Shown here piece by piece: positions 1,670 through 11,098 of a DNA stretch of 45,578 bases. The position numbers and the translations under genes are program-made. Under the pieces are notes generated by a model. It was not told where the DNA came from. It searched no databases and saw only the letters and a program-made list of their open reading frames with translations. How positions within the stretch are numbered: the first letter of the stretch is position 1; each line of letters opens with the position of its first letter. Source of the stretch: Bacteroidales bacterium (GTDB taxonomy: Bacteria > Bacteroidota > Bacteroidia > Bacteroidales > UBA932); the NCBI GenBank assembly GCA_024398365.1, contig JAKSJG010000008.1, positions 1 to 45,578 of the forward strand. The letters run 5' to 3'.

Positions 1670-2623
1670 ATGGAACTTTCGATAGTCATATCCCTTTTCA
1701 ACGAAGTTGAATCCCTTCCCGAACTGGTGGCCTGGATCGGCCGCGCGCTGGAAGGCAAAGTATCGTCATACGAGATCATAATGGTGGACGACGGCAGCAC
1801 TGACGGGTCCTGGGACAAGATCGTGGAGCTTTCCGCATCCTGCCCGCAGATCCGCGGCATACGCTTCCGCCGCAACTACGGCAAATCCGCCGCGCTCTAT
1901 GAAGGATTCGCGGCAGCGCAGGGCGACATAGTCGTGACCATGGACGCCGACCTGCAGGATGACCCTGAAGAGATCCCGGAGATGATGCGCATGATACGCG
2001 AGGACGGCTACGATCTGGTATCCGGCTGGAAACGCAAGAGATATGACGACGTGCTGACCAAGAACATCCCGTCGAAGATATACAATGCCACCGCGCGCAA
2101 GGTGACGGGCATCAAGCTGCACGACATGAACTGCGGCCTGAAGGCATACCGCAACGAGGTGGTCAAGAACATCGAGGTGTACGGTGACATGCACCGCTTC
2201 ATCCCTTATCTTGCAAAACAGGCGGGCTTCGGCAAAATCGGAGAGAAGGAAGTGCACCACCAGGCCCGCAAATACGGCAAGAGCAAATTCGGCCTCGAGC
2301 GCTTCATCCACGGCTTCCTCGACCTGATGACCATCTGGTTCCTCCAGAAATTCGGCAAGAAGCCTATGCACTTCTTCGGCGCGATGGGCACGGGCACCTT
2401 CCTGGTGGGCTTTGTCATCACACTCTGGATCATCATCGAAAAACTCATCCGCCAGGGCGCCGGACGCCCATTCAGGGCGGTCACTGACCAGCCCCTCTTC
2501 TACCTCGCCCTGCTGGCGATCATACTCGGCACCATGCTCTTCCTGACCGGCTTCATCGCCGAGCTCATCTCACGCAGCAACCAGGACCGCAACCGCTACA
2601 ACATCCGCGAGAGGCTGAGATAA
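1670..2623 (+). CDS. DPM1/GtrB-type family 2 glycosyltransferase
   Basis: A 317-residue membrane-anchored GT-A glycosyltransferase that should transfer a sugar from a nucleotide sugar to a polyprenyl-phosphate on the cytoplasmic face. The N-terminal nucleotide-binding strand ends in VDDGST (39-44) and the metal-binding motif is MDADLQDD (DxD at 92-94). The acceptor region HDMNCGLKAYR (151-161) is typical of the DPM1-like branch. Two C-terminal transmembrane helices (about 235-256 and 275-299) match GtrB-type architecture. The sugar and acceptor cannot be read from sequence. It is probably cotranscribed with the DUF4199 gene, 6 bp upstream. Confidence 0.88.
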   Translation: MELSIVISLFNEVESLPELVAWIGRALEGKVSSYEIIMVDDGSTDGSWDKIVELSASCPQIRGIRFRRNYGKSAALYEGFAAAQGDIVVTMDADLQDDPEEIPEMMRMIREDGYDLVSGWKRKRYDDVLTKNIPSKIYNATARKVTGIKLHDMNCGLKAYRNEVVKNIEVYGDMHRFIPYLAKQAGFGKIGEKEVHHQARKYGKSKFGLERFIHGFLDLMTIWFLQKFGKKPMHFFGAMGTGTFLVGFVITLWIIIEKLIRQGAGRPFRAVTDQPLFYLALLAIILGTMLFLTGFIAELISRSNQDRNRYNIRERLR

Positions 2624-2635
2624 CTGGTAAAAAAA

Positions 2636-2662
2636 GCCCTCCGGACCACTGTCTCGGAGGGC
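2636..2662 (-). terminator. Rho-independent terminator (minus strand)
   Basis: GCCCTCCG (2636-2643) pairs with CGGAGGGC (2655-2662) around an 11-nt loop. On the minus strand the hairpin is followed by seven T residues (complement of 2629-2635), so it should terminate transcription from the serpin remnant side. It also lies just past the glycosyltransferase stop codon, but on the plus strand no T-tract directly follows. Confidence 0.75.
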
Positions 2663-2682
2663 ATGAAATAAAGCGTCTGCCT

Positions 2683-2928
2683 TTATTTTGTCACTGTACC
2701 CATGAAGAGTATTGTGTTGTGGATATCGACGATGGCATAGACGAACGGCCTGTCGGCGGTAAAGGTGTGGATTTTAGGGATGTCCAGCGAAGTCATACCT
2801 TCTTCTACGGCGGTTATGGCAGTTGCCACAGTGCCCTTTTCAGTAACGAGCAATTTCGTTGACTGATGAAGATTATCCAGGCATGCATATTCATCTTCAA
2901 ACATACCATTCAGTGGGACAGAAAGGTT
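2683..2928 (-). pseudogene. Serpin remnant: C-terminal 81 residues only
   Basis: The reading frame directly after the stop codon of the upstream lipoprotein encodes NLSVPLNGMF, then the serpin reactive-loop hinge (TEKGTVATAITAV) and the C-terminal serpin signature (FTADRPFVYAIVD, ILFMGTV). Counting from the conserved hinge Glu as P17 puts P1-P1' near Thr-Ser. A working serpin needs about 370 residues; here the helices and most of sheets A to C are absent. The first ATG (2902-2904) gives 73 residues, but homology starts before it. The piece is in the same frame as the lipoprotein gene, separated by one TAA. Serpins inhibit serine and some cysteine peptidases, notable beside two C10 peptidase homologues. 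It is probably a decayed or recombined gene; expression as a readthrough tail cannot be excluded. Confidence 0.75.
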
Positions 2929-3573
2929 TTAAAACTTCACGTCGGTTGTCAGCGTTATCACTTCATCATCATCGGTGGTAAGAATAATTGAGATAGAATA
3001 TGTACCAGATACTTCCGGATTGGAATCAAAATGAAGATAGAAGAGTGGTATATATGCCGGCAGCAATGTCAGGTCAGCCGGAGCCAGATCCTTCACACTT
3101 TTCTCAATGTTTCTCGTTTCTTCACCGGCATAGCCTTTTGAAATGTATTCTGATACCGATGTTGTGGAGAAAGTGATGATATCATTAAGTGATGATCCTG
3201 CCGGATGACTCTTGTCGAAGGATTCCTCGCAAACGATATCCAGGGACTTGAAGTCCTTATAATAACACTCGTTGTATAAAGTCTCCGGAACGAATTCCTC
3301 AGGATAGGACGTATCTGAATGCTTTGCACAGAGCGAGTGATAGATATCAATATCGCCGCCCTTGGATTTATTTGAATAATATGGATAATCCTCCGACTTG
3401 GAATCAACCATCACAATGCTCAACACATTCCCGTTTCCAACCTCAACGGACAAAGGATTGTAGCCATAAGCCAGAACATATGAATCGGAAGCCTGCTTGG
3501 GAAATTCATCGGAAGAGCAGCCGGAAAATATGAAGCAGACAGTAACAACAAAGAATAATACACACTTTTTCAT
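2929..3573 (-). CDS. Unrecognised lipoprotein
   Basis: A 214-residue predicted lipoprotein. I chose the ATG at 3571-3573 because it starts a classic lipoprotein signal: MKKC, a hydrophobic core, then the lipobox FSGC with SSDE after the cysteine, an acidic start that in Bacteroidota often marks surface export. The open frame 22 codons further upstream is isoleucine-rich and lacks support. The C-terminal part (SGTYSISIILTTDDDEVITLTTDVKF region) reads as beta strands of an immunoglobulin-like fold. I do not recognise the family. The base composition is clearly more AT-rich than the flanking genes, suggesting acquisition. The stop codon is followed in frame by a serpin fragment. Confidence 0.75.
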   Translation of the reverse strand: MKKCVLFFVVTVCFIFSGCSSDEFPKQASDSYVLAYGYNPLSVEVGNGNVLSIVMVDSKSEDYPYYSNKSKGGDIDIYHSLCAKHSDTSYPEEFVPETLYNECYYKDFKSLDIVCEESFDKSHPAGSSLNDIITFSTTSVSEYISKGYAGEETRNIEKSVKDLAPADLTLLPAYIPLFYLHFDSNPEVSGTYSISIILTTDDDEVITLTTDVKF

Positions 3574-3648
3574 AATATGTATGTTTAAATTAATATACAA
3601 TGGTTCTATGATAATAATTATGATTGTGAACGCCATCATCTTCCGTCA

Positions 3649-3656
3649 CAAATCTA
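3649..3656 (-). promoter_or_regulatory. Candidate -7 box, lipoprotein gene
   Basis: Read on the minus strand this is TAGATTTG, matching TAnnTTTG. It is 75 nt upstream of the lipoprotein ATG. A TTTG lies further upstream but at a 28-bp spacing, longer than usual, so support is moderate. Confidence 0.4.
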
Positions 3657-3883
3657 CCATAATGAATCGTACATTTATTAAACGCAAAGAACATTGTTTT
3701 ACTGCATAAATTTAATGAAATTAATTTTTGAAATGAATCAAAAATGTTATTAATACGTGTAATTTGTCGAATTTCTGTAGGTTAATTAAATATTTATTCG
3801 CAGCATAACGAAAGCTGGACAATTACGTTATTGTTTTGGCCGGCAAATACTAGTCCTTCATGCCTAATTTGACACTAGGCAAT

Positions 3884-3913
3884 AGCCCCCCGGACAGCTT
3901 GTTCCGGAGGGCT
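3884..3913 (-). terminator. Hairpin after the C10-like operon
   Basis: AGCCC-C-CCGGA (3884-3894) pairs with TCCGG-A-GGGCT (3903-3913), with one C/A mismatch and an 8-nt loop. It sits 37 bp past the stop of the C10-like gene. Unlike the related hairpin at 2636-2662, no T-tract follows it on the minus strand, so termination may be weak. Both hairpins are preceded on the minus strand by a similar CGCTTTWTTTCA sequence. Confidence 0.5.
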
Positions 3914-3949
3914 GAAAAAAGCGTTAGTCGTAAAGTATAATCCTTACGT

Positions 3950-5506
3950 TTATCTCTGGCCGCCGCCGTTGCCGCCCGGCTCGCTTCCGTCCATACGGAA
4001 GGACAGCATTGCTTCGCGGTTGGAATGGTCGAGTTCGCCCACGTGCCAGTCACCCGAGTCAACGACCCAGACATCATCGCCGTTGCCATAATTGCCCCAG
4101 TTCATGTGGAAATATGAAGTGACTGCATCAGCGATGGTTTCCGCAGCCACTAAATTAGTATAAAGTGGGAAATGAGACAGGTCATCGGGTATGAAATGGT
4201 AGATAATATTATAATATGACAATCCCGTGCGGCAGCCGTCCACGATATATGTATGCGGATCTGTAAACTGTGAACCGCCGGAGTGGACGATTGAAGGCAT
4301 AGCGTGATCCTGCAGCATCGATGCGATCTCATCGTAAGGATTCACCTCGGAATCATTGAACCCCACAAGATAGCTTTCAAGGCCATACTCATCGTGAATA
4401 GCACGCTTGAGAGCTTCGAATTCGCCATACGAGAATCTGACGCCATAGGTCATATCCATCTTCTTGCCGATATTGGCCAGCATTACAGCAGCCATCCTGA
4501 CGGAATCCGAAGAATTGAAGAATGCCCAGTTGGCCTCAGATTTGTCGGTCTGCTCCATACCGCTGCAAGCAGCATCCTCTCCAATGAATGATGTCACGCT
4601 GGCATATCTGTAAACCTCCGGACAGCAATCGCCATTGTGGTGCATGAAATAAACCATCTGTCCGCCGGCCACAGCCTCGCTTCCGGCAGGGGCGTGTCCG
4701 TATGTATCATGATTGACAGGGCAATACTGGTTATACCCGTCCATTTCACCCCATTGGGTTGTGGTAAGTGGGCCTACCTGGGAAGAAATCTGCGTATATG
4801 AATATACTCCTGTCAGATATTCGTAATGTCCCGGTTCTGGATGATATGAAGTGTCAAGCGGAGATCCGGCTCTTGTATTAACGGATTCTTTCAATTCAGG
4901 CAAATATGGTAAGATAGGCTTAGGATCGAACAAACCCGGCATTGTTTTGAAAAGTTCTTTCATACGCTCTCCCTCTTCCAGAATGGCGCACCATATGCCA
5001 TAGTTTTCCCTGCCATTCCTGATTTCTCCGGAGTATGTGCGCAATGCGGCAACCTCTGCAGCCAGATCCTTGACACAAGCGGCCAGATTAGGATTCACCT
5101 CATCGAAGTCAAAACGCCCGTCACCGGCCGCCAATACGATTGGAGTGCGCTTGTCGGATGAAACAATCTCCCAATGGCCAGTCGGGTAGTTTATTATAAA
5201 GACAGACGGTTTTTCCGGATACCCCGGATAGCAGGCAATTCCGCAGCTGCCTGGTTCCGGAAAAAACCTGTCCTTGTGATCATACTTTACCTTTGCAAAG
5301 TTCCATCCCTGGCCCGTTGCCTTGAAGATGACATATGACTCCACATCCTCATAAACGACACCGAATTCATCCGGTCTCAAATCGTCATAACTTCGGGTCT
5401 CAGGAATGAGGTCATCGTCCCCGTCGGTCTGATTCTGAATATCAACCTTGTTACAGGACATCGCCATTGCGGCAGCAAGCAATGAATAAACAATTAAACG
5501 TCTCAT
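3950..5506 (-). CDS. C10 (streptopain/Spi) family lipoprotein, catalytic Cys replaced
   Basis: A 518-residue lipoprotein (copy A). Residues 1-18 are a lipoprotein signal with lipobox AMSC. A Spi-like propeptide follows (about 45-160; hallmark HWEIVSSDKRTPIVLAAGDG). The C10 peptidase fold covers about 240-505: TTQWGEMDGYNQYCP, the nucleophile helix, the His loop DPHTYIVDG (His418) and FHMNWGNYGNG. In active C10 enzymes the nucleophile motif reads GCVAVA..Q; here it is GSEAVAGGQ, so Ser276 stands in the Cys position. The protein is probably not a normal cysteine peptidase; it could be a binding protein or pseudo-enzyme. The tail is Gly-rich (EPGGNGGGQR). It is last in the sigma operon, 31 bp after copy B, and parts are nearly identical to copy B. 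Confidence 0.85.
   Translation of the reverse strand: MRRLIVYSLLAAAMAMSCNKVDIQNQTDGDDDLIPETRSYDDLRPDEFGVVYEDVESYVIFKATGQGWNFAKVKYDHKDRFFPEPGSCGIACYPGYPEKPSVFIINYPTGHWEIVSSDKRTPIVLAAGDGRFDFDEVNPNLAACVKDLAAEVAALRTYSGEIRNGRENYGIWCAILEEGERMKELFKTMPGLFDPKPILPYLPELKESVNTRAGSPLDTSYHPEPGHYEYLTGVYSYTQISSQVGPLTTTQWGEMDGYNQYCPVNHDTYGHAPAGSEAVAGGQMVYFMHHNGDCCPEVYRYASVTSFIGEDAACSGMEQTDKSEANWAFFNSSDSVRMAAVMLANIGKKMDMTYGVRFSYGEFEALKRAIHDEYGLESYLVGFNDSEVNPYDEIASMLQDHAMPSIVHSGGSQFTDPHTYIVDGCRTGLSYYNIIYHFIPDDLSHFPLYTNLVAAETIADAVTSYFHMNWGNYGNGDDVWVVDSGDWHVGELDHSNREAMLSFRMDGSEPGGNGGGQR
4236..4576. repeat. 341-bp identical block, copy A
   Basis: This stretch is identical base for base to 5824-6164, 1588 bp away. 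It covers the centre of the C10 domain, ending just after the His loop codons. Flanking parts of the two genes are clearly diverged, though similarity continues with scattered mismatches on the 4577-4760 side. Confidence 0.9.
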
Positions 5507-5537
5507 ACCATGAATAGATTGAAGTTACCTCACACAT

Positions 5538-7082
5538 TTATCTCTGGCCGCCACCGTTGCCGCCCGGCTCGCTTCCGTCCATACGGAAGGACAGCATTGC
5601 TTCGCGGTTGGTATAGTCCAGTTCGCCCACGTGCCAGTCACCCGAGTCAACGACCCAGACATCATTGCCGTTGCCATAATTGCCCCAGTTCATATGGAAC
5701 ATTGAGACAGGTCCGAGTGCGGCGGTCTCGAGAGCGTACAGATTAAGATATAGCGGCTGATTGGCCAGATTATCCGGGACAAAACGATACATTCTGTTTA
5801 CATACTGTACAGATCTGGCATATCCGTCCACGATATATGTATGCGGATCTGTAAACTGTGAACCGCCGGAGTGGACGATTGAAGGCATAGCGTGATCCTG
5901 CAGCATCGATGCGATCTCATCGTAAGGATTCACCTCGGAATCATTGAACCCCACAAGATAGCTTTCAAGGCCATACTCATCGTGAATAGCACGCTTGAGA
6001 GCTTCGAATTCGCCATACGAGAATCTGACGCCATAGGTCATATCCATCTTCTTGCCGATATTGGCCAGCATTACAGCAGCCATCCTGACGGAATCCGAAG
6101 AATTGAAGAATGCCCAGTTGGCCTCAGATTTGTCGGTCTGCTCCATACCGCTGCAAGCAGCATCGTCTCCAATGAATGATGTCACGCTGGCATATCTGTA
6201 AACCTCAGGACAGCAATCGGCATTATGGTGCATGAAATATACCATCTGTCCGCCGGCAACAGCCTCGCTTCCGGCAGGGGCGTGTCCGTATGTATCAGGA
6301 TTGATAGGGCAATACTGATTATACCCGTCCATTTCACCCCATTGGGTTGTAGTAAGGGGATATACACGAGGAGCTACGGCAGCGTATGTATAAAACGAGT
6401 CAGCCAATTCATAATGACCGGCTTCAGGATGGTATGTTGTGTCGAGTAGGGAGCCGGCTCTTGTCGGGGAATTGAAATTCATCAGCGTGAGTGCATTCTT
6501 CGGATCGAACAGGAACGGTGTTGTGCGGAAATCTTTAAACGCTTTGTCACCTGCTTCAATGACAGCACACCAGACATCGAAATTCTCCCTGGCATTCCTG
6601 AGCTTTCCGTAATAATGGCGCAACGCGGCGACCTCGGCAGCAAGATCTTTGACACAAGCGGCCAGATTAGGATTCACCTTATCGAATTCAAAACGCCCGT
6701 CACCGGCCGCCAATACGACCGAAGTGCGCTTGTCGGCTGAAACCACCTCCCAACTGTTGGGATAATTGATGATATAGACAGCCGGATTTTCCGGGTCCGG
6801 ATAGCAGGTGATCTCAAAACTGCCTGTTTTCGGATAGAACCTTTCATCGAAAGCGTAAACTTGTTTTGACCAGTTTTTGGCAAGTCCCCTGGCCTTCAAA
6901 ATGACATATCTGTAAACCTCGGGATAGGTGACACGCAATTCTTCCGGATTCAATTCGTCATAACTGCGGGTCTCCAGAATGAAGTCGGACTCGTCTCCGT
7001 CAGGCTGATTCGGAATGTCAACCTTGGTGCAGGCCACCGCCATTGCAGCAACAAGCATCGAATAAATGAATAGACGTTTCAT
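5538..7082 (-). CDS. C10 (streptopain/Spi) family lipoprotein, catalytic Cys replaced
   Basis: A 514-residue paralogue (copy B) of the downstream gene with the same plan: lipoprotein signal with lipobox AVAC (Cys18), Spi-like propeptide (about 45-160; SWEVVSADKRTSVVLAAGDG), then a C10 domain. The nucleophile position is again Ser (Ser272 in GSEAVAGGQ) and the catalytic-type His is kept (His414). The two copies differ most in the propeptide, the 190-240 linker and about 40 residues after the His loop (YARSVQYVNRMYRFVPDNLA versus CRTGLSYYNIIYHFIPDDLS), which could be a ligand-facing surface. It lies 32 bp after the anti-sigma/barrel gene and 31 bp before copy A. Ser in both copies argues against a sequencing error. 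Confidence 0.85.
   Translation of the reverse strand: MKRLFIYSMLVAAMAVACTKVDIPNQPDGDESDFILETRSYDELNPEELRVTYPEVYRYVILKARGLAKNWSKQVYAFDERFYPKTGSFEITCYPDPENPAVYIINYPNSWEVVSADKRTSVVLAAGDGRFEFDKVNPNLAACVKDLAAEVAALRHYYGKLRNARENFDVWCAVIEAGDKAFKDFRTTPFLFDPKNALTLMNFNSPTRAGSLLDTTYHPEAGHYELADSFYTYAAVAPRVYPLTTTQWGEMDGYNQYCPINPDTYGHAPAGSEAVAGGQMVYFMHHNADCCPEVYRYASVTSFIGDDAACSGMEQTDKSEANWAFFNSSDSVRMAAVMLANIGKKMDMTYGVRFSYGEFEALKRAIHDEYGLESYLVGFNDSEVNPYDEIASMLQDHAMPSIVHSGGSQFTDPHTYIVDGYARSVQYVNRMYRFVPDNLANQPLYLNLYALETAALGPVSMFHMNWGNYGNGNDVWVVDSGDWHVGELDYTNREAMLSFRMDGSEPGGNGGGQR
5824..6164. repeat. 341-bp identical block, copy B
   Basis: This block is identical to 4236-4576. The first mismatches are at 5823 (T versus G at 4235) and 6165 (G versus C at 4577). 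A second near-identical stretch joins the gene ends (5541-5700 with 3953-4110), with only a handful of differences. Confidence 0.9.
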
Positions 7083-7114
7083 ATTGTATTATATTTTGTT
7101 AATGTTTCGATGTA

Positions 7115-8323
7115 CTACAGGGTGAATCTCAATCCCGTCTGGAATGTAAACAGCAACGGGGACTCATTGTATATTATGCCATTGCCTTCTCCGTTATCAA
7201 AATGATATGACACGCCAGGCTCCAGATATATGCCACAGCATCCGGCAAAGCGGTACTGGTATCCGGCAGATCCCGAGACGGACCACAACAATCCGGAAGG
7301 TTCAATGATGTTTTCGGTGGAAGCACCGACGAACTTCTCCGCCATACCGCCGGCCTTGGTATAGAAATTCGATTTCCCCATGCTGTATATATCATATTTC
7401 AGGGCAAGCGGAATGCCCAGGTAGTGATAGGTTGTCCGTAGCGATTTACCTCCGCTTGTTATTGTTTCAGCAAGCACTGTGTAATTGACGCCGCTCTCGA
7501 CCGATAACCTGTCGGACAGACCATAAGACAGTGTCACAGCGGCAACTACCGGAACGGAGAGCTGACGGTTCAACAATTTGAGGACATACTTCGGATCCGG
7601 ATTGAAGCCGTTACTTTCCGCTGTGCTTCTGACCTGCGCTGCAGGATAGTTGTCCACATTGTCAGACGAGACCGGTACCATTGCCGGAAAAGTATTACTG
7701 CTATTGATAATGGGGGCAGACGATCCAGAGTTAACCGCTATGCTGAGCCTTCTGCCGCGCGGCTTCTCTTCGTACAGCGATGCGATGTAACGCTCCGGTG
7801 AGACGCCGTTGTCCTGTCTGCCGGTCTGAGGAGCCGGAGTGGATTCAGGATGCGCTGCCGATGGATCCGATGTATTGGCAGGGGTGGCGGAAACTGCCGG
7901 AGTGGCAGGGTCGTCCGCCGGGCGGACCTCAGATATCACAGTCTCAGAAGCATCTGACGGGCGGACATCCGCAGCGGATGCCTCCGCGGCGGCAAGCCGC
8001 TTCCTTGCAACCGTTGCTGCCGGAGTCACAGGCTCCGAAGTCTCCGGTCCGACGGTTTCAACAGTATGGTTTTCAGCCAACAGGCCGGTTGCATTCTGCA
8101 GGTCATCGACGGCTCCTTTCGGAATCAGGAAAAGCGCCGAGACAGCCGCGGCCGCTGCGAGACCGGTCACCATAGCGATGGTCCTGCGGGCACGGGCACG
8201 CCTGCGCTGCGCGGCCGCGAGAGTGGAAACTGCCTTCCACATATCCTCGCCGCCATCTTCCCGTACTGTGCTGACCTTTTCAGCCATCACCTCCAGCCAA
8301 TCCATGTTACCATTTGTCTTCAT
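7115..8323 (-). CDS. Anti-sigma-like protein with C-terminal outer-membrane barrel
   Basis: A 402-residue protein directly after, and overlapping by 17 bp, an ECF sigma gene. Residues 1-46 are a charged cytoplasmic segment (MDWLEVMAEKVS, then a RRRARARR stop-transfer cluster). Residues 48-67 form one transmembrane helix. Residues 70-240 are a long Ala/Thr/Pro/Ser/Glu linker. From about 245 to the end, alternating aromatic/polar strands match an eight-stranded OmpA/OMP_b-brl-type barrel (GYQYRFAGCCGIYLEPGVSY, TFQTGLRFTL). Taken literally, one chain would be anchored in the inner membrane, cross the periplasm and insert in the outer membrane. Similar sigma-plus-barrel pairs occur in Bacteroidota but are poorly characterised. 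The anti-sigma role is inferred from position. Confidence 0.75.
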   Translation of the reverse strand: MKTNGNMDWLEVMAEKVSTVREDGGEDMWKAVSTLAAAQRRRARARRTIAMVTGLAAAAAVSALFLIPKGAVDDLQNATGLLAENHTVETVGPETSEPVTPAATVARKRLAAAEASAADVRPSDASETVISEVRPADDPATPAVSATPANTSDPSAAHPESTPAPQTGRQDNGVSPERYIASLYEEKPRGRRLSIAVNSGSSAPIINSSNTFPAMVPVSSDNVDNYPAAQVRSTAESNGFNPDPKYVLKLLNRQLSVPVVAAVTLSYGLSDRLSVESGVNYTVLAETITSGGKSLRTTYHYLGIPLALKYDIYSMGKSNFYTKAGGMAEKFVGASTENIIEPSGLLWSVSGSAGYQYRFAGCCGIYLEPGVSYHFDNGEGNGIIYNESPLLFTFQTGLRFTL

Positions 8324-8864
8324 TTTGACGATACTGTTTGATTTTCATTGCCATCAGTTTGCGGGCCCTCATCAATTGAGTGGACGATGTCTGCTTCGTG
8401 ATGCCGAGAGCAGCCGCTATTTCATCGTGTTTCATCTTTTCGAAAGCGAACAGGTTGAGCACCGTGCGGCAGCCATCGGGCAGTTCTGAAATCATCTTCA
8501 GAAGGACCTTTTCAGGTATCTTCACCACATCTTCCGGTTCAGGATCCACAATATCCTCCGCAAACTGTTCGGCGAATATTTCAGGACCCTTCTTACGCAG
8601 GCGCATCAGCGACTCATTGACCATTATCTTCACCGCCCAGGCCCTGAGAGACCCCTCACCGCGGAAATTGAAGCGCCCGATATTGTTGATGATCCTGGCA
8701 AATCCCTCCTGAAATACATCCTTGGCATCCGGATCGTTGCGCGAATATCGCCGGCACACGGTCATCAGCTCGGGTTTCAACTGGTCGTACAGAAGCCTCA
8801 TTGCCACCTCCTCCCCTTTCTTGCATCTGCTGACAAGGTCTATTTCCGATATCTGCTGTTCCAT
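8307..8864 (-). CDS. ECF (sigma-70 family) RNA polymerase sigma factor
   Basis: A 185-residue ECF sigma factor. Region 2 covers about 20-95 (CRRYSRNDPDAKDVFQEGF, then FRGEGSLRAWAVKIMVNESL, the core-binding and -10 recognition parts). Region 4 covers about 120-175 (LPDGCRTVLNLFAFEKMKHD, then EIAAALGITKQTSSTQLMRARK, the helix-turn-helix). Regions 1 and 3 are missing, as expected. It is first in an operon with the anti-sigma/barrel gene and the two C10-like lipoproteins, which are its likely targets along with itself. The upstream 66 bp lack a TAnnTTTG box, fitting control by an alternative sigma, possibly itself. Confidence 0.92.
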   Translation of the reverse strand: MEQQISEIDLVSRCKKGEEVAMRLLYDQLKPELMTVCRRYSRNDPDAKDVFQEGFARIINNIGRFNFRGEGSLRAWAVKIMVNESLMRLRKKGPEIFAEQFAEDIVDPEPEDVVKIPEKVLLKMISELPDGCRTVLNLFAFEKMKHDEIAAALGITKQTSSTQLMRARKLMAMKIKQYRQNEDKW

Positions 8865-8880
8865 CTTTCACTAATATAAA

Positions 8881-8903
8881 TGCAGAAAAGTCAAAAGTCT
8901 GCA
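8881..8903. promoter_or_regulatory. Inverted and direct repeats upstream of ECF sigma gene
   Basis: TGCAGA (8881-8886) is inverted at 8898-8903, and between them AAAAGTC occurs twice in tandem (8886-8892, 8893-8899). The cluster is 17-39 bp upstream of the sigma ATG, where an ECF-type promoter would lie. On the minus strand it also follows the pldA stop after a T-rich run, so it may be a terminator for that operon. The two roles cannot be separated by eye. Confidence 0.35.
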
Positions 8904-8930
8904 AAAAGACAGTCAAAAAAACAACAAAAA

Positions 8931-9707
8931 TTAGAAAAAGAGCCTCTGCTGCTTTGAGCCTGGCTGTACGGATACTCCGAAACGGAGCATCCTGCGGAGG
9001 AATACGTCAGGCATGGCGCAGTCTATCTGTGCCTCGTCGTAGCCGTAGTGGTATTGTGCGGTGATGTAGAACCAGTCCCTGTCTCGGAATGGTCTGAATG
9101 CAAGTTCAGCAGTGCAGTTGGCAAGAATGTCACCGTCAAATAGCGGTGTGACGGAAGCCTTGAGCCAGAGCCTGTCCCCCACTCCGGAATATCCGATGCC
9201 GAAATTGAAGTAGCCCTGATATCTGTTGAACATCTCAAGAGAATAATCGTTGCCGATGGAGCCTATGCCCATGCGGCCTGTGGCCTGAATGGCCAGATGC
9301 CTTCCGAATGGTTGTGTATATGAACAGAAGGCGTAGTCAAGAGAACGGGAATCGTCACCGTCACGACCGTTGGAACGGTGCTCGTAACCCGCGAGGAATC
9401 TGTCGTTGGAAGCATACAGACCGTTCATGTAGGTATTCTCCCGGAAGGGATTGGACGGTCTGTATACGTCCCATACTGACAGTTGTGTGTAACCCCAGAA
9501 AAAGTCCCAGCCGTTATAGTCCTGAACGGCATTGAAACGGACACTCAGCTGAAATGTCAGGTCGTTGGTGTCATAGTCCGGAGTTGTGTTGAGAGGCACG
9601 CCGGTGATGAAATAATTCTCCTTGAACGGGCTCAGGAAGGCCTTCTGGGCACTTGCACCGAGGCAGCTCAGCAGGAGGAAAGCTATTGCAGCACAGGCGT
9701 GTCGCAT
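8931..9707 (-). CDS. pldA: Outer-membrane phospholipase A
   Basis: A 258-residue PldA-family beta-barrel that hydrolyses acyl chains of phospholipids in the outer leaflet. The start is at 9707, where a signal peptide (MRHACAAIAFLLLSCLGASAQ) begins 2 bp after the lpdA stop; the longer frame overlaps lpdA and has no signal. Family motifs are present: KENYFITG, FWGYTQLSVWD, NPFRENTYM and the active-site stretch GYEHRSNGRD-SRS. By alignment with E. coli PldA (His142, Ser144, Asn156), His110 and Ser112 are kept, but the Asn position is Asp124 (SRSLDY). The chain ends in Phe, as outer-membrane barrels do. It is the last gene of the secA operon. Confidence 0.85.
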   Translation of the reverse strand: MRHACAAIAFLLLSCLGASAQKAFLSPFKENYFITGVPLNTTPDYDTNDLTFQLSVRFNAVQDYNGWDFFWGYTQLSVWDVYRPSNPFRENTYMNGLYASNDRFLAGYEHRSNGRDGDDSRSLDYAFCSYTQPFGRHLAIQATGRMGIGSIGNDYSLEMFNRYQGYFNFGIGYSGVGDRLWLKASVTPLFDGDILANCTAELAFRPFRDRDWFYITAQYHYGYDEAQIDCAMPDVFLRRMLRFGVSVQPGSKQQRLFF

Positions 9708-9709
9708 CT

Positions 9710-11098
9710 TTAGCAGTGGATGGCCTCGCCATGGATGGCTGCGGCAGCCTCCATTATGGCCTCGCTCATTGTAGGGTGCGGCCATACTGACTTCATGATG
9801 TCAGCAGCCTTGACGCCCATGTTGCGTGCAGTAACGATGCCGCCAATCATCTCTGATACGTTTGCACCTACGAGATGTGCTCCGAGGAGTTCATCCGTGT
9901 CAGCGTCAGCGATGAGCTTGATGAAGCCGTCACGCTCGCCGGCAGCGGTAGCCTTGCCGGATGCGGTGAACGGGAACTTGCCGACCTTGCAGTTGATGCC
10001 CTTCTCCTTGGCGGCGCGCTCTGTCATACCGGCGGAAGCGACTTCCGGAGAGATGTATGTGCAGCCAGGGATATTGTCGTAGCGTACAGGTGCAGGGTTG
10101 AGACCTGCGATAGCCTCGACGCAGTTGATGCCTTCTGCTGAAGCCACGTGTGCGAGAGCCTGTGTAGGGATGATGTCGCCGATGGCATAGAGGCCGTCAA
10201 CGTTGGTCTTGTAGTTCTTGTCAACTACAATCTTGCCGCGGTTCATCTCGACACCGAGGGCCTCCAGGCCGAGATCTTCGGTATTAGGACGTACGCCGAC
10301 AGCTGAGAGTACCTTCTCGGCTTCAATGATTTCGGTACCCTTCTTGGTCTCTACAGTGAGCTTGCAGAGTTCGCCGGTGGTATCCACGCTCTTGACCTGT
10401 GATGATACCATCACCTTCATGCCCATCTTGCGGAATGATCGGCTGATCTGAGCTGAAACATCGTCATCCTCAACAGGGAGTATGCGCTCCTGGAACTCGA
10501 TGATGGTCACATCCACACCGAGGGAACGGTAGAAGAATGCGAATTCGCTGCCGATGGCGCCTGAACCTATGACTGCAAGGCTCTTAGGGAGGCTTTCAGG
10601 AACGAGTGCCTGATAGTAGCAGATGATCTTTTCGCCGTCAACAGGTGCGAAAGGCAGAGATACAGGTCTTGCGCCTGTGGCGAGGATGATGTGGTCAGCC
10701 TCGTATATCTCGGTCTTGCCTTCGGCATCTTCAACGCTTACGCGCTTGCCTGCGAGCACCTTGCCTGAACCTGCGAGTACGGTGACCTTGTTCTTCTTGA
10801 AGAGGTAGCCGATGCCGGCGTTCATAGTGGCTGACACACCGCGGCTGCGGCTTACCATCTTGGCAAGGTCCGGAGTCACGTTCTCGGCGTTGAAGCCGAA
10901 TTCCGCACCGTTCTGTGCATAATGATATGCCTGAGCGCTCTTGAGGAGGGCCTTGGTAGGGATGCAGCCCCAGTTGAGGCAGATGCCGCCGAGTTCGTTG
11001 CGTTCAACGACAGCGGTGTTGAAACCGAGCTGAGCAGCCCTGATTGCGGCAACGTAGCCACCCGGGCCCGCACCGATTACAATAACGTCATATTTCAT
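9710..11098 (-). CDS. lpdA: Dihydrolipoyl dehydrogenase (E3)
   Basis: A 462-residue flavoprotein disulfide reductase that reoxidises dihydrolipoyl groups of 2-oxoacid dehydrogenase or glycine cleavage complexes, with NAD+ as acceptor. Visible are the FAD fingerprint GAGPGG (9-14), the redox disulfide GGICLNWGCIPTK (Cys40, Cys45), an NAD-binding GSGAIGSEFAFFY and the C-terminal His-Glu motif HPTMSEAIMEAA. Length is typical. It lies 23 bp after secA and 2 bp before pldA. No E1 or E2 genes are nearby, so this is probably a shared E3. Confidence 0.96.
   Translation of the reverse strand: MKYDVIVIGAGPGGYVAAIRAAQLGFNTAVVERNELGGICLNWGCIPTKALLKSAQAYHYAQNGAEFGFNAENVTPDLAKMVSRSRGVSATMNAGIGYLFKKNKVTVLAGSGKVLAGKRVSVEDAEGKTEIYEADHIILATGARPVSLPFAPVDGEKIICYYQALVPESLPKSLAVIGSGAIGSEFAFFYRSLGVDVTIIEFQERILPVEDDDVSAQISRSFRKMGMKVMVSSQVKSVDTTGELCKLTVETKKGTEIIEAEKVLSAVGVRPNTEDLGLEALGVEMNRGKIVVDKNYKTNVDGLYAIGDIIPTQALAHVASAEGINCVEAIAGLNPAPVRYDNIPGCTYISPEVASAGMTERAAKEKGINCKVGKFPFTASGKATAAGERDGFIKLIADADTDELLGAHLVGANVSEMIGGIVTARNMGVKAADIMKSVWPHPTMSEAIMEAAAAIHGEAIHC

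What the first reader, a model, noticed from the sequence alone, without database searches (positions are those of the whole stretch)
3950..8864. Four-gene operon: ECF sigma, trans-envelope anti-sigma, two C10-fold pseudo-peptidases
Sequence shows the sigma and anti-sigma/barrel genes overlapping by 17 bp, then two C10/Spi lipoproteins spaced 32 and 31 bp. Known: ECF sigma genes are often paired with a membrane anti-sigma and control adjacent genes. Inference: a signal at the outer-membrane barrel passes through the single-chain protein to the sigma factor, which induces two surface lipoproteins that keep the C10 fold but not its nucleophile. I know of no described system with this set.
Basis: partly seen in the sequence, partly recalled or inferred. 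Interest (0 to 1): 0.72.

Follow-up and report, generated by a model that had tools for sequence, protein, structure and literature searches.

The report
Sigma-controlled surface antiprotease operon, dead proteases
A bacterium of the order Bacteroidales carries a gene switch that spans its whole cell envelope next to two protease look-alikes that have lost their cutting residues, and in its close relatives the same kind of switch often sits beside protease inhibitors (serpins), which suggests a surface defence against proteases.

Summary
The four genes are as described: ECF sigma, a 17-bp-overlapping anti-sigma (one TM helix, outer-membrane barrel), and two SpeB/interpain-like (C10) zymogen lipoproteins without the catalytic Cys. 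The anti-sigma is not a new kind; it has the architecture of the published Dma (dual membrane-spanning anti-sigma) family. The order is not unique: two related operons lie in the same genome and variants in related genomes. The main new result is the cargo. In 40 genus genomes, 42 of 86 Dma genes have a serpin within 3.5 kb (random mean 1.6), and the window keeps a 73-aa serpin remnant (2683-2904) downstream. Only low-scoring (divergent) C10s sit near serpins or Dma genes (19 of 41; 0 of 82 high-scoring). The window's C10s belong to a serine clade with correlated loss of Cys, oxyanion Gln and often His; an ortholog pair of that clade is under purifying selection, so these look like working pseudo-proteases. 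A bipartite ECF-like promoter lies just before the sigma start. Most likely: a Dma-controlled surface anti-protease (inhibitor/decoy) response. Signal, regulation and targets are untested, and no structure could be predicted because the server never accepted a job.

The parts
8875..8903 (-). ECF-like bipartite promoter, TGC-N16-TGCATTTATA, ending 10 nt before the sigma ATG
   Evidence: Aligned with upstream regions of contigs C60, C37 and G031:C43; a looser form of the -10 element is upstream of 15 of 41 sigma genes and 3 of 447 other genes (motif read off these same regions, so partly circular); TGCRTTTATA occurs once in the 45.6-kb window, 0.04 expected
8307..8864 (-). ECF sigma factor, 185 aa
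   Evidence: Pfam Sigma70_r2 and r4_2, NCBIfam sigma70-ECF above its cut-off
7115..8323 (-). Dma-like dual membrane-spanning anti-sigma: residues 1-48 cytoplasmic, TM 49-67, Pro/Ser/Thr/Ala-rich tether, C-terminal barrel
   Evidence: Hydropathy and composition; barrel family in 7 of 8 aligned homologues; 17-bp overlap with the sigma gene
5538..7082 (-). C10-like pseudo-peptidase lipoprotein A: lipobox AVAC at residue 18, SpeB-like propeptide about 97-150, C10 domain 248-474, Ser272, Glu250, Glu273, His414
6267..6269 (-). Codon of Ser272 (place of the catalytic Cys) in pseudo-peptidase A
   Evidence: numbering on the ORF
3950..5506 (-). C10-like pseudo-peptidase lipoprotein B: lipobox AMSC, C10 domain 252-478, Ser276, Glu254, His418
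4679..4681 (-). Codon of Ser276 (place of the catalytic Cys) in pseudo-peptidase B
   Evidence: numbering; read
5824..6164 (-). 341-nt block of gene A exactly identical to 4236-4576 of gene B (gene conversion or recent exchange; assembly artefact not excluded)
4236..4576 (-). 341-nt block of gene B exactly identical to 5824-6164 of gene A
3884..3913 (-). Strong hairpin after the last operon gene, a possible terminator without a T run
   Evidence: Stretch 3855-3949 folds with z -5.08, 0 of 200 shuffles as stable
2929..3639 (-). Putative lipoprotein of unknown family downstream (start probably at 3576); may or may not belong
   Evidence: no Pfam match above cut-off
2683..2904 (-). Serpin remnant, 73 aa, C-terminal part with hinge and reactive-centre loop only
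   Evidence: PF00079 E 2.5e-12, profile 301-368 of 370;

Best explanation
The locus is a Dma-type sigma/anti-sigma operon, one of a family repeated across this Bacteroidales genus, whose commonest recognised cargo is lipoprotein serpins. Here the cargo is a tandem pair of SpeB/interpain-like zymogen lipoproteins that have lost catalysis, and the serpin has decayed to a remnant. Proposed working: a change at the outer-membrane barrel, perhaps proteolysis or ligand binding, is passed along the periplasmic tether to the cytoplasmic N-terminus and frees the ECF sigma, which fires its own promoter just upstream and so makes more sigma, Dma and the lipoproteins. Sent to the envelope surface, the serpins trap proteases and the dead C10/propeptide proteins act as inhibitors or decoys for papain-like (C10) proteases. 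Shown by sequence: gene order, architecture, loss of catalytic residues, purifying selection in one ortholog pair of the serine clade, Dma-serpin and divergent C10-serpin linkage, promoter-like motif. From the literature: Dma loss activates its sigma and its own operon in B. thetaiotaomicron. Inferred: the signal, surface location, anti-protease purpose and decoy role.
For: Dma architecture and sigma overlap; published Dma2 anatomy, and up-regulation of its own operon when dma2 is deleted (PMC13088901). Linkage in 40 genus genomes: 42 of 86 Dma genes have a serpin within 3.5 kb (34 on the same strand, 8 on the opposite strand only) against a random mean of 1.6 and maximum of 7 in 2000 simulations; 28 of 36 genomes with a Dma. 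In 84 distinct Dma loci read, 78 have a sigma gene, 29 a serpin and 9 a C10 in the same-strand chain. On a Dma tree the serpin label needs 8 changes (at least 7 forced) against a shuffled mean of 22.5, so the pairing is clustered yet recurs in several clades. One sigma-Dma-serpin run in another family of the order. Divergent C10s near a serpin or Dma 19 of 41, high-scoring C10s 0 of 82. Linked serpins keep an inhibitory-type hinge and have diverse reactive loops. Ser clade: supported at 100/99, sister to serpin-linked Cys-type C10s; 9 of 9 non-Cys full-length rows have changed at least one more active-site position, 44 of 44 Cys rows keep Gln and His; dN/dS 0.13 between the G013 and G031 orthologs. 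Promoter.
Against: No expression data. The window has no intact serpin and counts among the 44 Dma genes without one near. In 84 Dma loci 55 lack a serpin in the chain, and one large Dma clade lies mostly beside a ChlI-like gene or unidentified genes, so serpins are not the general Dma partner; outside the genus only 1 of 36 Dma genes in the 149-genome sample has a serpin near. The promoter motif was read off the same regions and is absent upstream of most sigma genes (26 of 41) and of 54 of 55 serpins, including those that begin serpin-sigma-Dma operons. Only 12 of 44 lipobox-bearing serpins and 3 of 19 C10s have 3 or more acidic residues just after the lipidated Cys, and the window's two have one each, so surface export is unproven. 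No experiment links dead C10 proteins to inhibition. The 341-nt identical block could be an assembly artefact in this MAG.
Confidence: 0.5

Rival explanations
1. Nutrient or substrate-capture role: the dead C10 proteins are surface binding proteins for proteins or peptides, kept for the C10 groove, and the linked serpins protect the cell's own secreted proteases or their products. The Dma pair senses substrate, as has been proposed for Dma2 and glycans.
For: Published hypothesis that Dma2 senses a glycan at the surface (PMC13088901 discussion). Divergent C10s with an intact Cys-Gln-His set sit in the same kind of operon, so some of these operons make active-looking proteases. The loop 416-460 next to the active site is highly diverged between A and B and between paralogs while the core is not. 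C10 proteases are co-transcribed with inhibitors in B. fragilis (PMC2873492).
Against: Serpins, not transporters or peptidases, are the commonest recognised partner; no SusC/SusD pair was seen in the Pfam scans made around the window operon (not all window ORFs were scanned).
Confidence: 0.22
2. General envelope or vesiculation regulator: the sigma/Dma pair mainly controls OMV production or PULs as in B. thetaiotaomicron, and the neighbours are passengers.
For: Dma1 and Dma2 both raise vesiculation; the genes next to dma2 are not needed for it (PMC13088901).
Against: Serpin linkage far above random and recurring in several Dma clades.
Confidence: 0.17
3. The Ser clade is not dead: Ser272 with Glu250 and Glu273 forms a new active site.
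For: Ser plus two acidic residues is kept in 7 of 7 full-length Ser rows, including one (G011) placed elsewhere on the tree on a long, unsure branch; purifying selection in one ortholog pair.
Against: His is Tyr in 4 and Glu in 1 of the 7; the eighth, truncated Ser row (G031:C43) has Gly instead of Glu250; no such mechanism is known to me in this fold (recalled); no structure could be predicted.
Confidence: 0.06
4. The two C10 genes are decaying pseudogenes or an assembly artefact.
For: The serpin beside them has decayed; the identical 341-nt block is unusual for a MAG contig.
Against: Both frames are open over more than 510 codons; orthologs of the same clade in two other genomes have dN/dS 0.13; the Ser clade is shared by three genomes (plus the truncated G031 copy).
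Confidence: 0.05

Closest known systems
Dma/Das dual membrane-spanning anti-sigma and ECF21 sigma pairs of Bacteroides thetaiotaomicron (Dma1, Dma2; PMC13088901: abstract, introduction, discussion and passages read)
   Same: One protein with N-terminal sigma-binding region, TM helix, disordered tether and C-terminal barrel, encoded beside an ECF sigma; downstream genes of unknown function in the operon
   Different: Published Dma2 operon carries DUF4943 and DUF4858 proteins, no serpin or C10; here the cargo is serpins and/or C10-like proteins. No sequence comparison with Dma1/2 could be made
C10 peptidases SpeB (streptopain), interpain A, Bfp of B. fragilis
   Same: Propeptide plus C10 domain in one chain; profile E 2e-25 to SpeB and 7e-24 to interpain A; lipoprotein C10s with neighbouring inhibitor genes occur in B. 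fragilis (PMC2873492, passages)
   Different: Catalytic Cys is Ser, oxyanion Gln is Glu, His lost in most of the clade (kept in the window pair); partners are serpins rather than staphostatin-like inhibitors
Bacterial serpins: miropin of Tannerella forsythia; serpin of Bifidobacterium under a two-component system (PMC8201313 and PMC6718151, passages)
   Same: Serpin with inhibitory-type hinge in a gut or oral bacterium; miropin inhibits serine and cysteine proteases; serpin expression under a dedicated, autoregulated signalling system in B. breve (title of the cited paper only)
   Different: Here the linked regulator is an ECF sigma with an envelope-spanning anti-sigma

Membership tests
[quoted passage not shown]
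   TM 49-67 after 48 residues, tether with 72% P/S/T/A/E/Q/K/D over 110 aa; barrel family in 7 of 8 homologues; no 3D model
[quoted passage not shown]
   17-bp overlap; sigma in chain for 78 of 84 distinct Dma loci read
[quoted passage not shown]
   No ECF21 model or Das sequence at hand; NCBIfam gives only the general ECF family above cut-off
[quoted passage not shown]
   Needs an experiment; known for Dma2 (PMC13088901)
Peptidase family C10 (as a fold) | Sequence above the family cut-off, propeptide plus catalytic domain | tested here: met
   PF01640 55.8 and 55.2 bits, cut-off 26; SpeB zymogen matched over propeptide and catalytic domain
Peptidase family C10 (as an active enzyme) | Catalytic Cys-His with oxyanion Gln | tested here: not met
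   Ser272, Glu250, His414 kept; 44 of 44 Cys rows have Gln and His
Spi / I69 inhibitor | PF13734 above cut-off | tested here: inconclusive
   22.0 and 20.0 bits against a cut-off of 25; the region aligns with the SpeB propeptide
Serpin (remnant 2683-2904) | Whole serpin fold | tested here: not met
   Only profile positions 301-368 of 370 present, 47 bits

The most novel reading that the evidence does not exclude
A protease-sensing circuit: damage or capture at the outer-membrane barrel of a Dma protein is passed in one chain to an ECF sigma, which induces a quickly diversifying set of surface serpins and catalytically dead protease decoys, the bacterial counterpart of an inducible antiprotease shield.
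Probability: 0.3. Interest if true: 0.82.

Novelty: new variant of a known kind. Interest (0 to 1): 0.62.

Why it matters
What Dma systems sense, and what the genes beside them do, is open in the published work read here. A repeated link to serpins gives a concrete, testable signal (proteases) and output (surface inhibitors) for one branch of the family. The Ser-clade C10 proteins are a well-marked set of pseudo-proteases in the SpeB/interpain fold, with correlated loss of active-site residues, and would be a natural test of whether a zymogen fold can be turned into an inhibitor or decoy.

Tried and rejected
Viral origin: a scan of viral contigs with the Ser-clade alignment found no relative. 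RNA leader: no Rfam match up to E 0.5 in 2600-9900. Dma against solved structures: nothing credible (best E 0.36). Promoter-like motif before the downstream lipoprotein 2929-3639: 3 of 447 other genes have the motif, about what chance gives, so not used. C10-serpin linkage outside the genus: the order-wide C10 list was cut off, so no statement is made. My first attempt to pull canonical C10s by a motif found none and was replaced by a profile. My simple ORF caller first missed some sigma genes under antisense ORFs; searches give HMM hits priority.

Rows dropped before counts: of 118 Dma rows, 86 were used (32 weaker rows left out, mostly second pieces of listed genes plus some weak separate hits); of 126 C10 rows, 123 were used (3 second pieces left out); all 115 serpin rows were used. 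One search printed 85 Dma entries, one of them a cut copy of a gene read whole elsewhere (84 distinct); two of the 86 Dma genes (G007:C39, G015:C176) were not fetched. In the tree, rows under 140 residues and three degenerate or fragmentary ones were left out, and skipped loci that repeat others (L062, L071, L072, L073, L081). Two of the 53 rows are the same protein. Genomes are related, so counts are not independent events.
Full report
Observation. The four minus-strand genes are present at the stated places with the stated spacing. Pfam gives an ECF sigma factor, a protein with only a weak barrel match, and two Peptidase_C10 proteins above cut-off with a sub-threshold Spi/I69 region. The second gene product has 48 residues before a TM helix (49-67), a Pro/Ser/Thr/Ala-rich stretch and a C-terminal region that 7 of 8 aligned homologues match to OMP_b-brl_2. 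A profile of 17 C10-like proteins hits SpeB zymogen (E 2e-25) and interpain A (7e-24); the SpeB match covers propeptide and catalytic domain, and the Cys column falls on residue 272 of C10A.

Pseudo-peptidases. Of 58 aligned rows 53 cover all active-site columns. All 44 Cys rows also have the Gln and His. All 9 non-Cys rows have changed at least one of these two: 8 have Glu instead of Gln250 and 7 lack His414. All 7 full-length Ser rows have an acidic residue at 273. Within this set the window's two proteins keep His; the other four members of their clade have Tyr. The clade (window pair, contigs C68 and C60 of the same genome, G013:C39, G031:C30) is supported at 100/99 and is sister to Cys-type C10s flanked by serpins. 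A truncated eighth Ser row (G031:C43, Gly instead of Glu250) was too short for the tree. Two orthologs in different genomes have dN/dS 0.13 overall and 0.09 in the core, so the clade is maintained. Other non-Cys rows exist in G011 (Ser) and in a horse-faeces MAG (Thr); the tree needs 3 changes of the Cys/non-Cys label.

Mosaic pair. C10A and C10B share a 341-nt exact block and a 96% identical 3' end, while the loop at 416-460 and the region 157-240 are saturated or nearly so at synonymous sites. Gene conversion around a preserved variable loop is the simplest reading; an assembly artefact is not excluded.

The order is not unique. In the same genome contig C60 has sigma-Dma-C10-serpin and contig C68 has Dma-C10-C10-serpin on one strand (213 bp between the two C10 ORFs), ending before any sigma gene can be seen; a third contig, C37, has sigma-Dma divergent from C10-serpin. 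G031, G033, G036 and G029 carry other mixtures of sigma, Dma, C10 and serpin.

Serpins. Ten of ten ~400-aa neighbours chosen for a Pfam scan included nine serpins (the tenth, L053, matched nothing). Across the 40 genomes of the genus, 42 of 86 Dma genes have a serpin within 3.5 kb (34 with one on the same strand), against a mean of 1.6 and a maximum of 7 when positions are random. These are in 28 of 36 genomes with a Dma. Reading 84 distinct Dma loci, 78 have a sigma in the same chain, 29 a serpin and 9 a C10. A Dma tree needs 8 changes of the serpin label (at least 7 forced by well supported branches; shuffled 22.5). Outside the genus, in a 149-genome sample of the order, Dma is in 30 and serpin in 60 genomes (both counts include the window's genome), but only one of 36 Dma genes (G183) is near a serpin; there the run serpin-sigma-Dma was read directly. 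C10s near a serpin or Dma are all low-scoring ones: 19 of 41 against 0 of 82. The window itself has no intact serpin, only the 73-aa C-terminal remnant at 2683-2904, and is not among the 42.

Control region. A looser TGYRTYTA-type -10 element is upstream of 15 of 41 sigma genes, 3 of 447 other genes, 2 of 33 C10, 2 of 38 Dma and 1 of 55 serpin genes. The motif was found in these regions, so the test is partly circular. In the window TGCATTTATA stands 20 nt before the sigma ATG and nowhere else in the 45.6 kb, with a TGC 16 nt further up, as in C60 and C37 and nearly so in G031:C43; other Dma operons have TGC-N18-TGCATCTAT. A hairpin follows C10B.

Mechanism and rivals. Dma loss activates the cognate sigma and its own operon in B. 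thetaiotaomicron (PMC13088901; abstract, sections 3 and 11 and passages read). By analogy this sigma should induce the C10-like genes. The cargo pattern points to a surface antiprotease response. Miropin, a serpin of a related bacterium, inhibits serine and cysteine proteases (passages in PMC8201313 and PMC6718151). B. fragilis C10 proteases are co-transcribed with inhibitors (PMC2873492, passages). Signal, surface exposure, targets and co-transcription are inference.

Novelty. Searches of the open-access library for serpin with anti-sigma (13 papers, 12 listed), serpin with Bacteroidetes and sigma factor (2) and ECF21 with Bacteroid- (2, 1 listed) gave, judged by titles and abstract starts, no description of this link; subscription papers are not held. 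The anti-sigma type is known, the C10 fold is known, and their joint use with serpins appears new: a new variant of a known kind.

Noticed in passing
window 8931-9785 (-): A phospholipase A1 (PLA1) outer-membrane protein gene lies 66 bp upstream of the sigma gene, overlapping the dihydrolipoamide-dehydrogenase-like gene 9710-11098; the sigma promoter lies in the 66-bp gap.
   Followed up: no
window 8875-8884 (-): The -10 element ends about 10 nt before the sigma start codon, as in several sister operons, so the sigma mRNA may be nearly leaderless or the true start lies further in.
   Followed up: no
own genome, contigs C55, C22, C13, C2, C51, C57, C34, C14: Ten high-scoring C10 peptidases in a 1.9-Mb genome, none within 3.5 kb of a serpin or Dma gene.
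   Followed up: partly
L126, L127, L134, L119: A Dma group in many genomes of the genus sits beside a ChlI/Mg-chelatase-like ATPase gene.
   Followed up: partly
L087:7728-9053, L088:7728-9038: Two C10-like lipoproteins of one horse-faeces MAG have Thr instead of Cys, Asn instead of His and Arg instead of Asn, on a separate branch.
   Followed up: partly
L053:5172-6248 and L059:6403-7482: Two roughly 358-aa lipoproteins beside C10 pieces match the C10 profile but show no recognisable active site.
   Followed up: no
L011 (C68), L053 (G031:C43), L059 (G031:C70), L121 (G000:C76): Contigs end in or near Dma/C10/serpin genes, as expected if these genes are repeated; the C76 serpin is split by a stop codon.
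   Followed up: no
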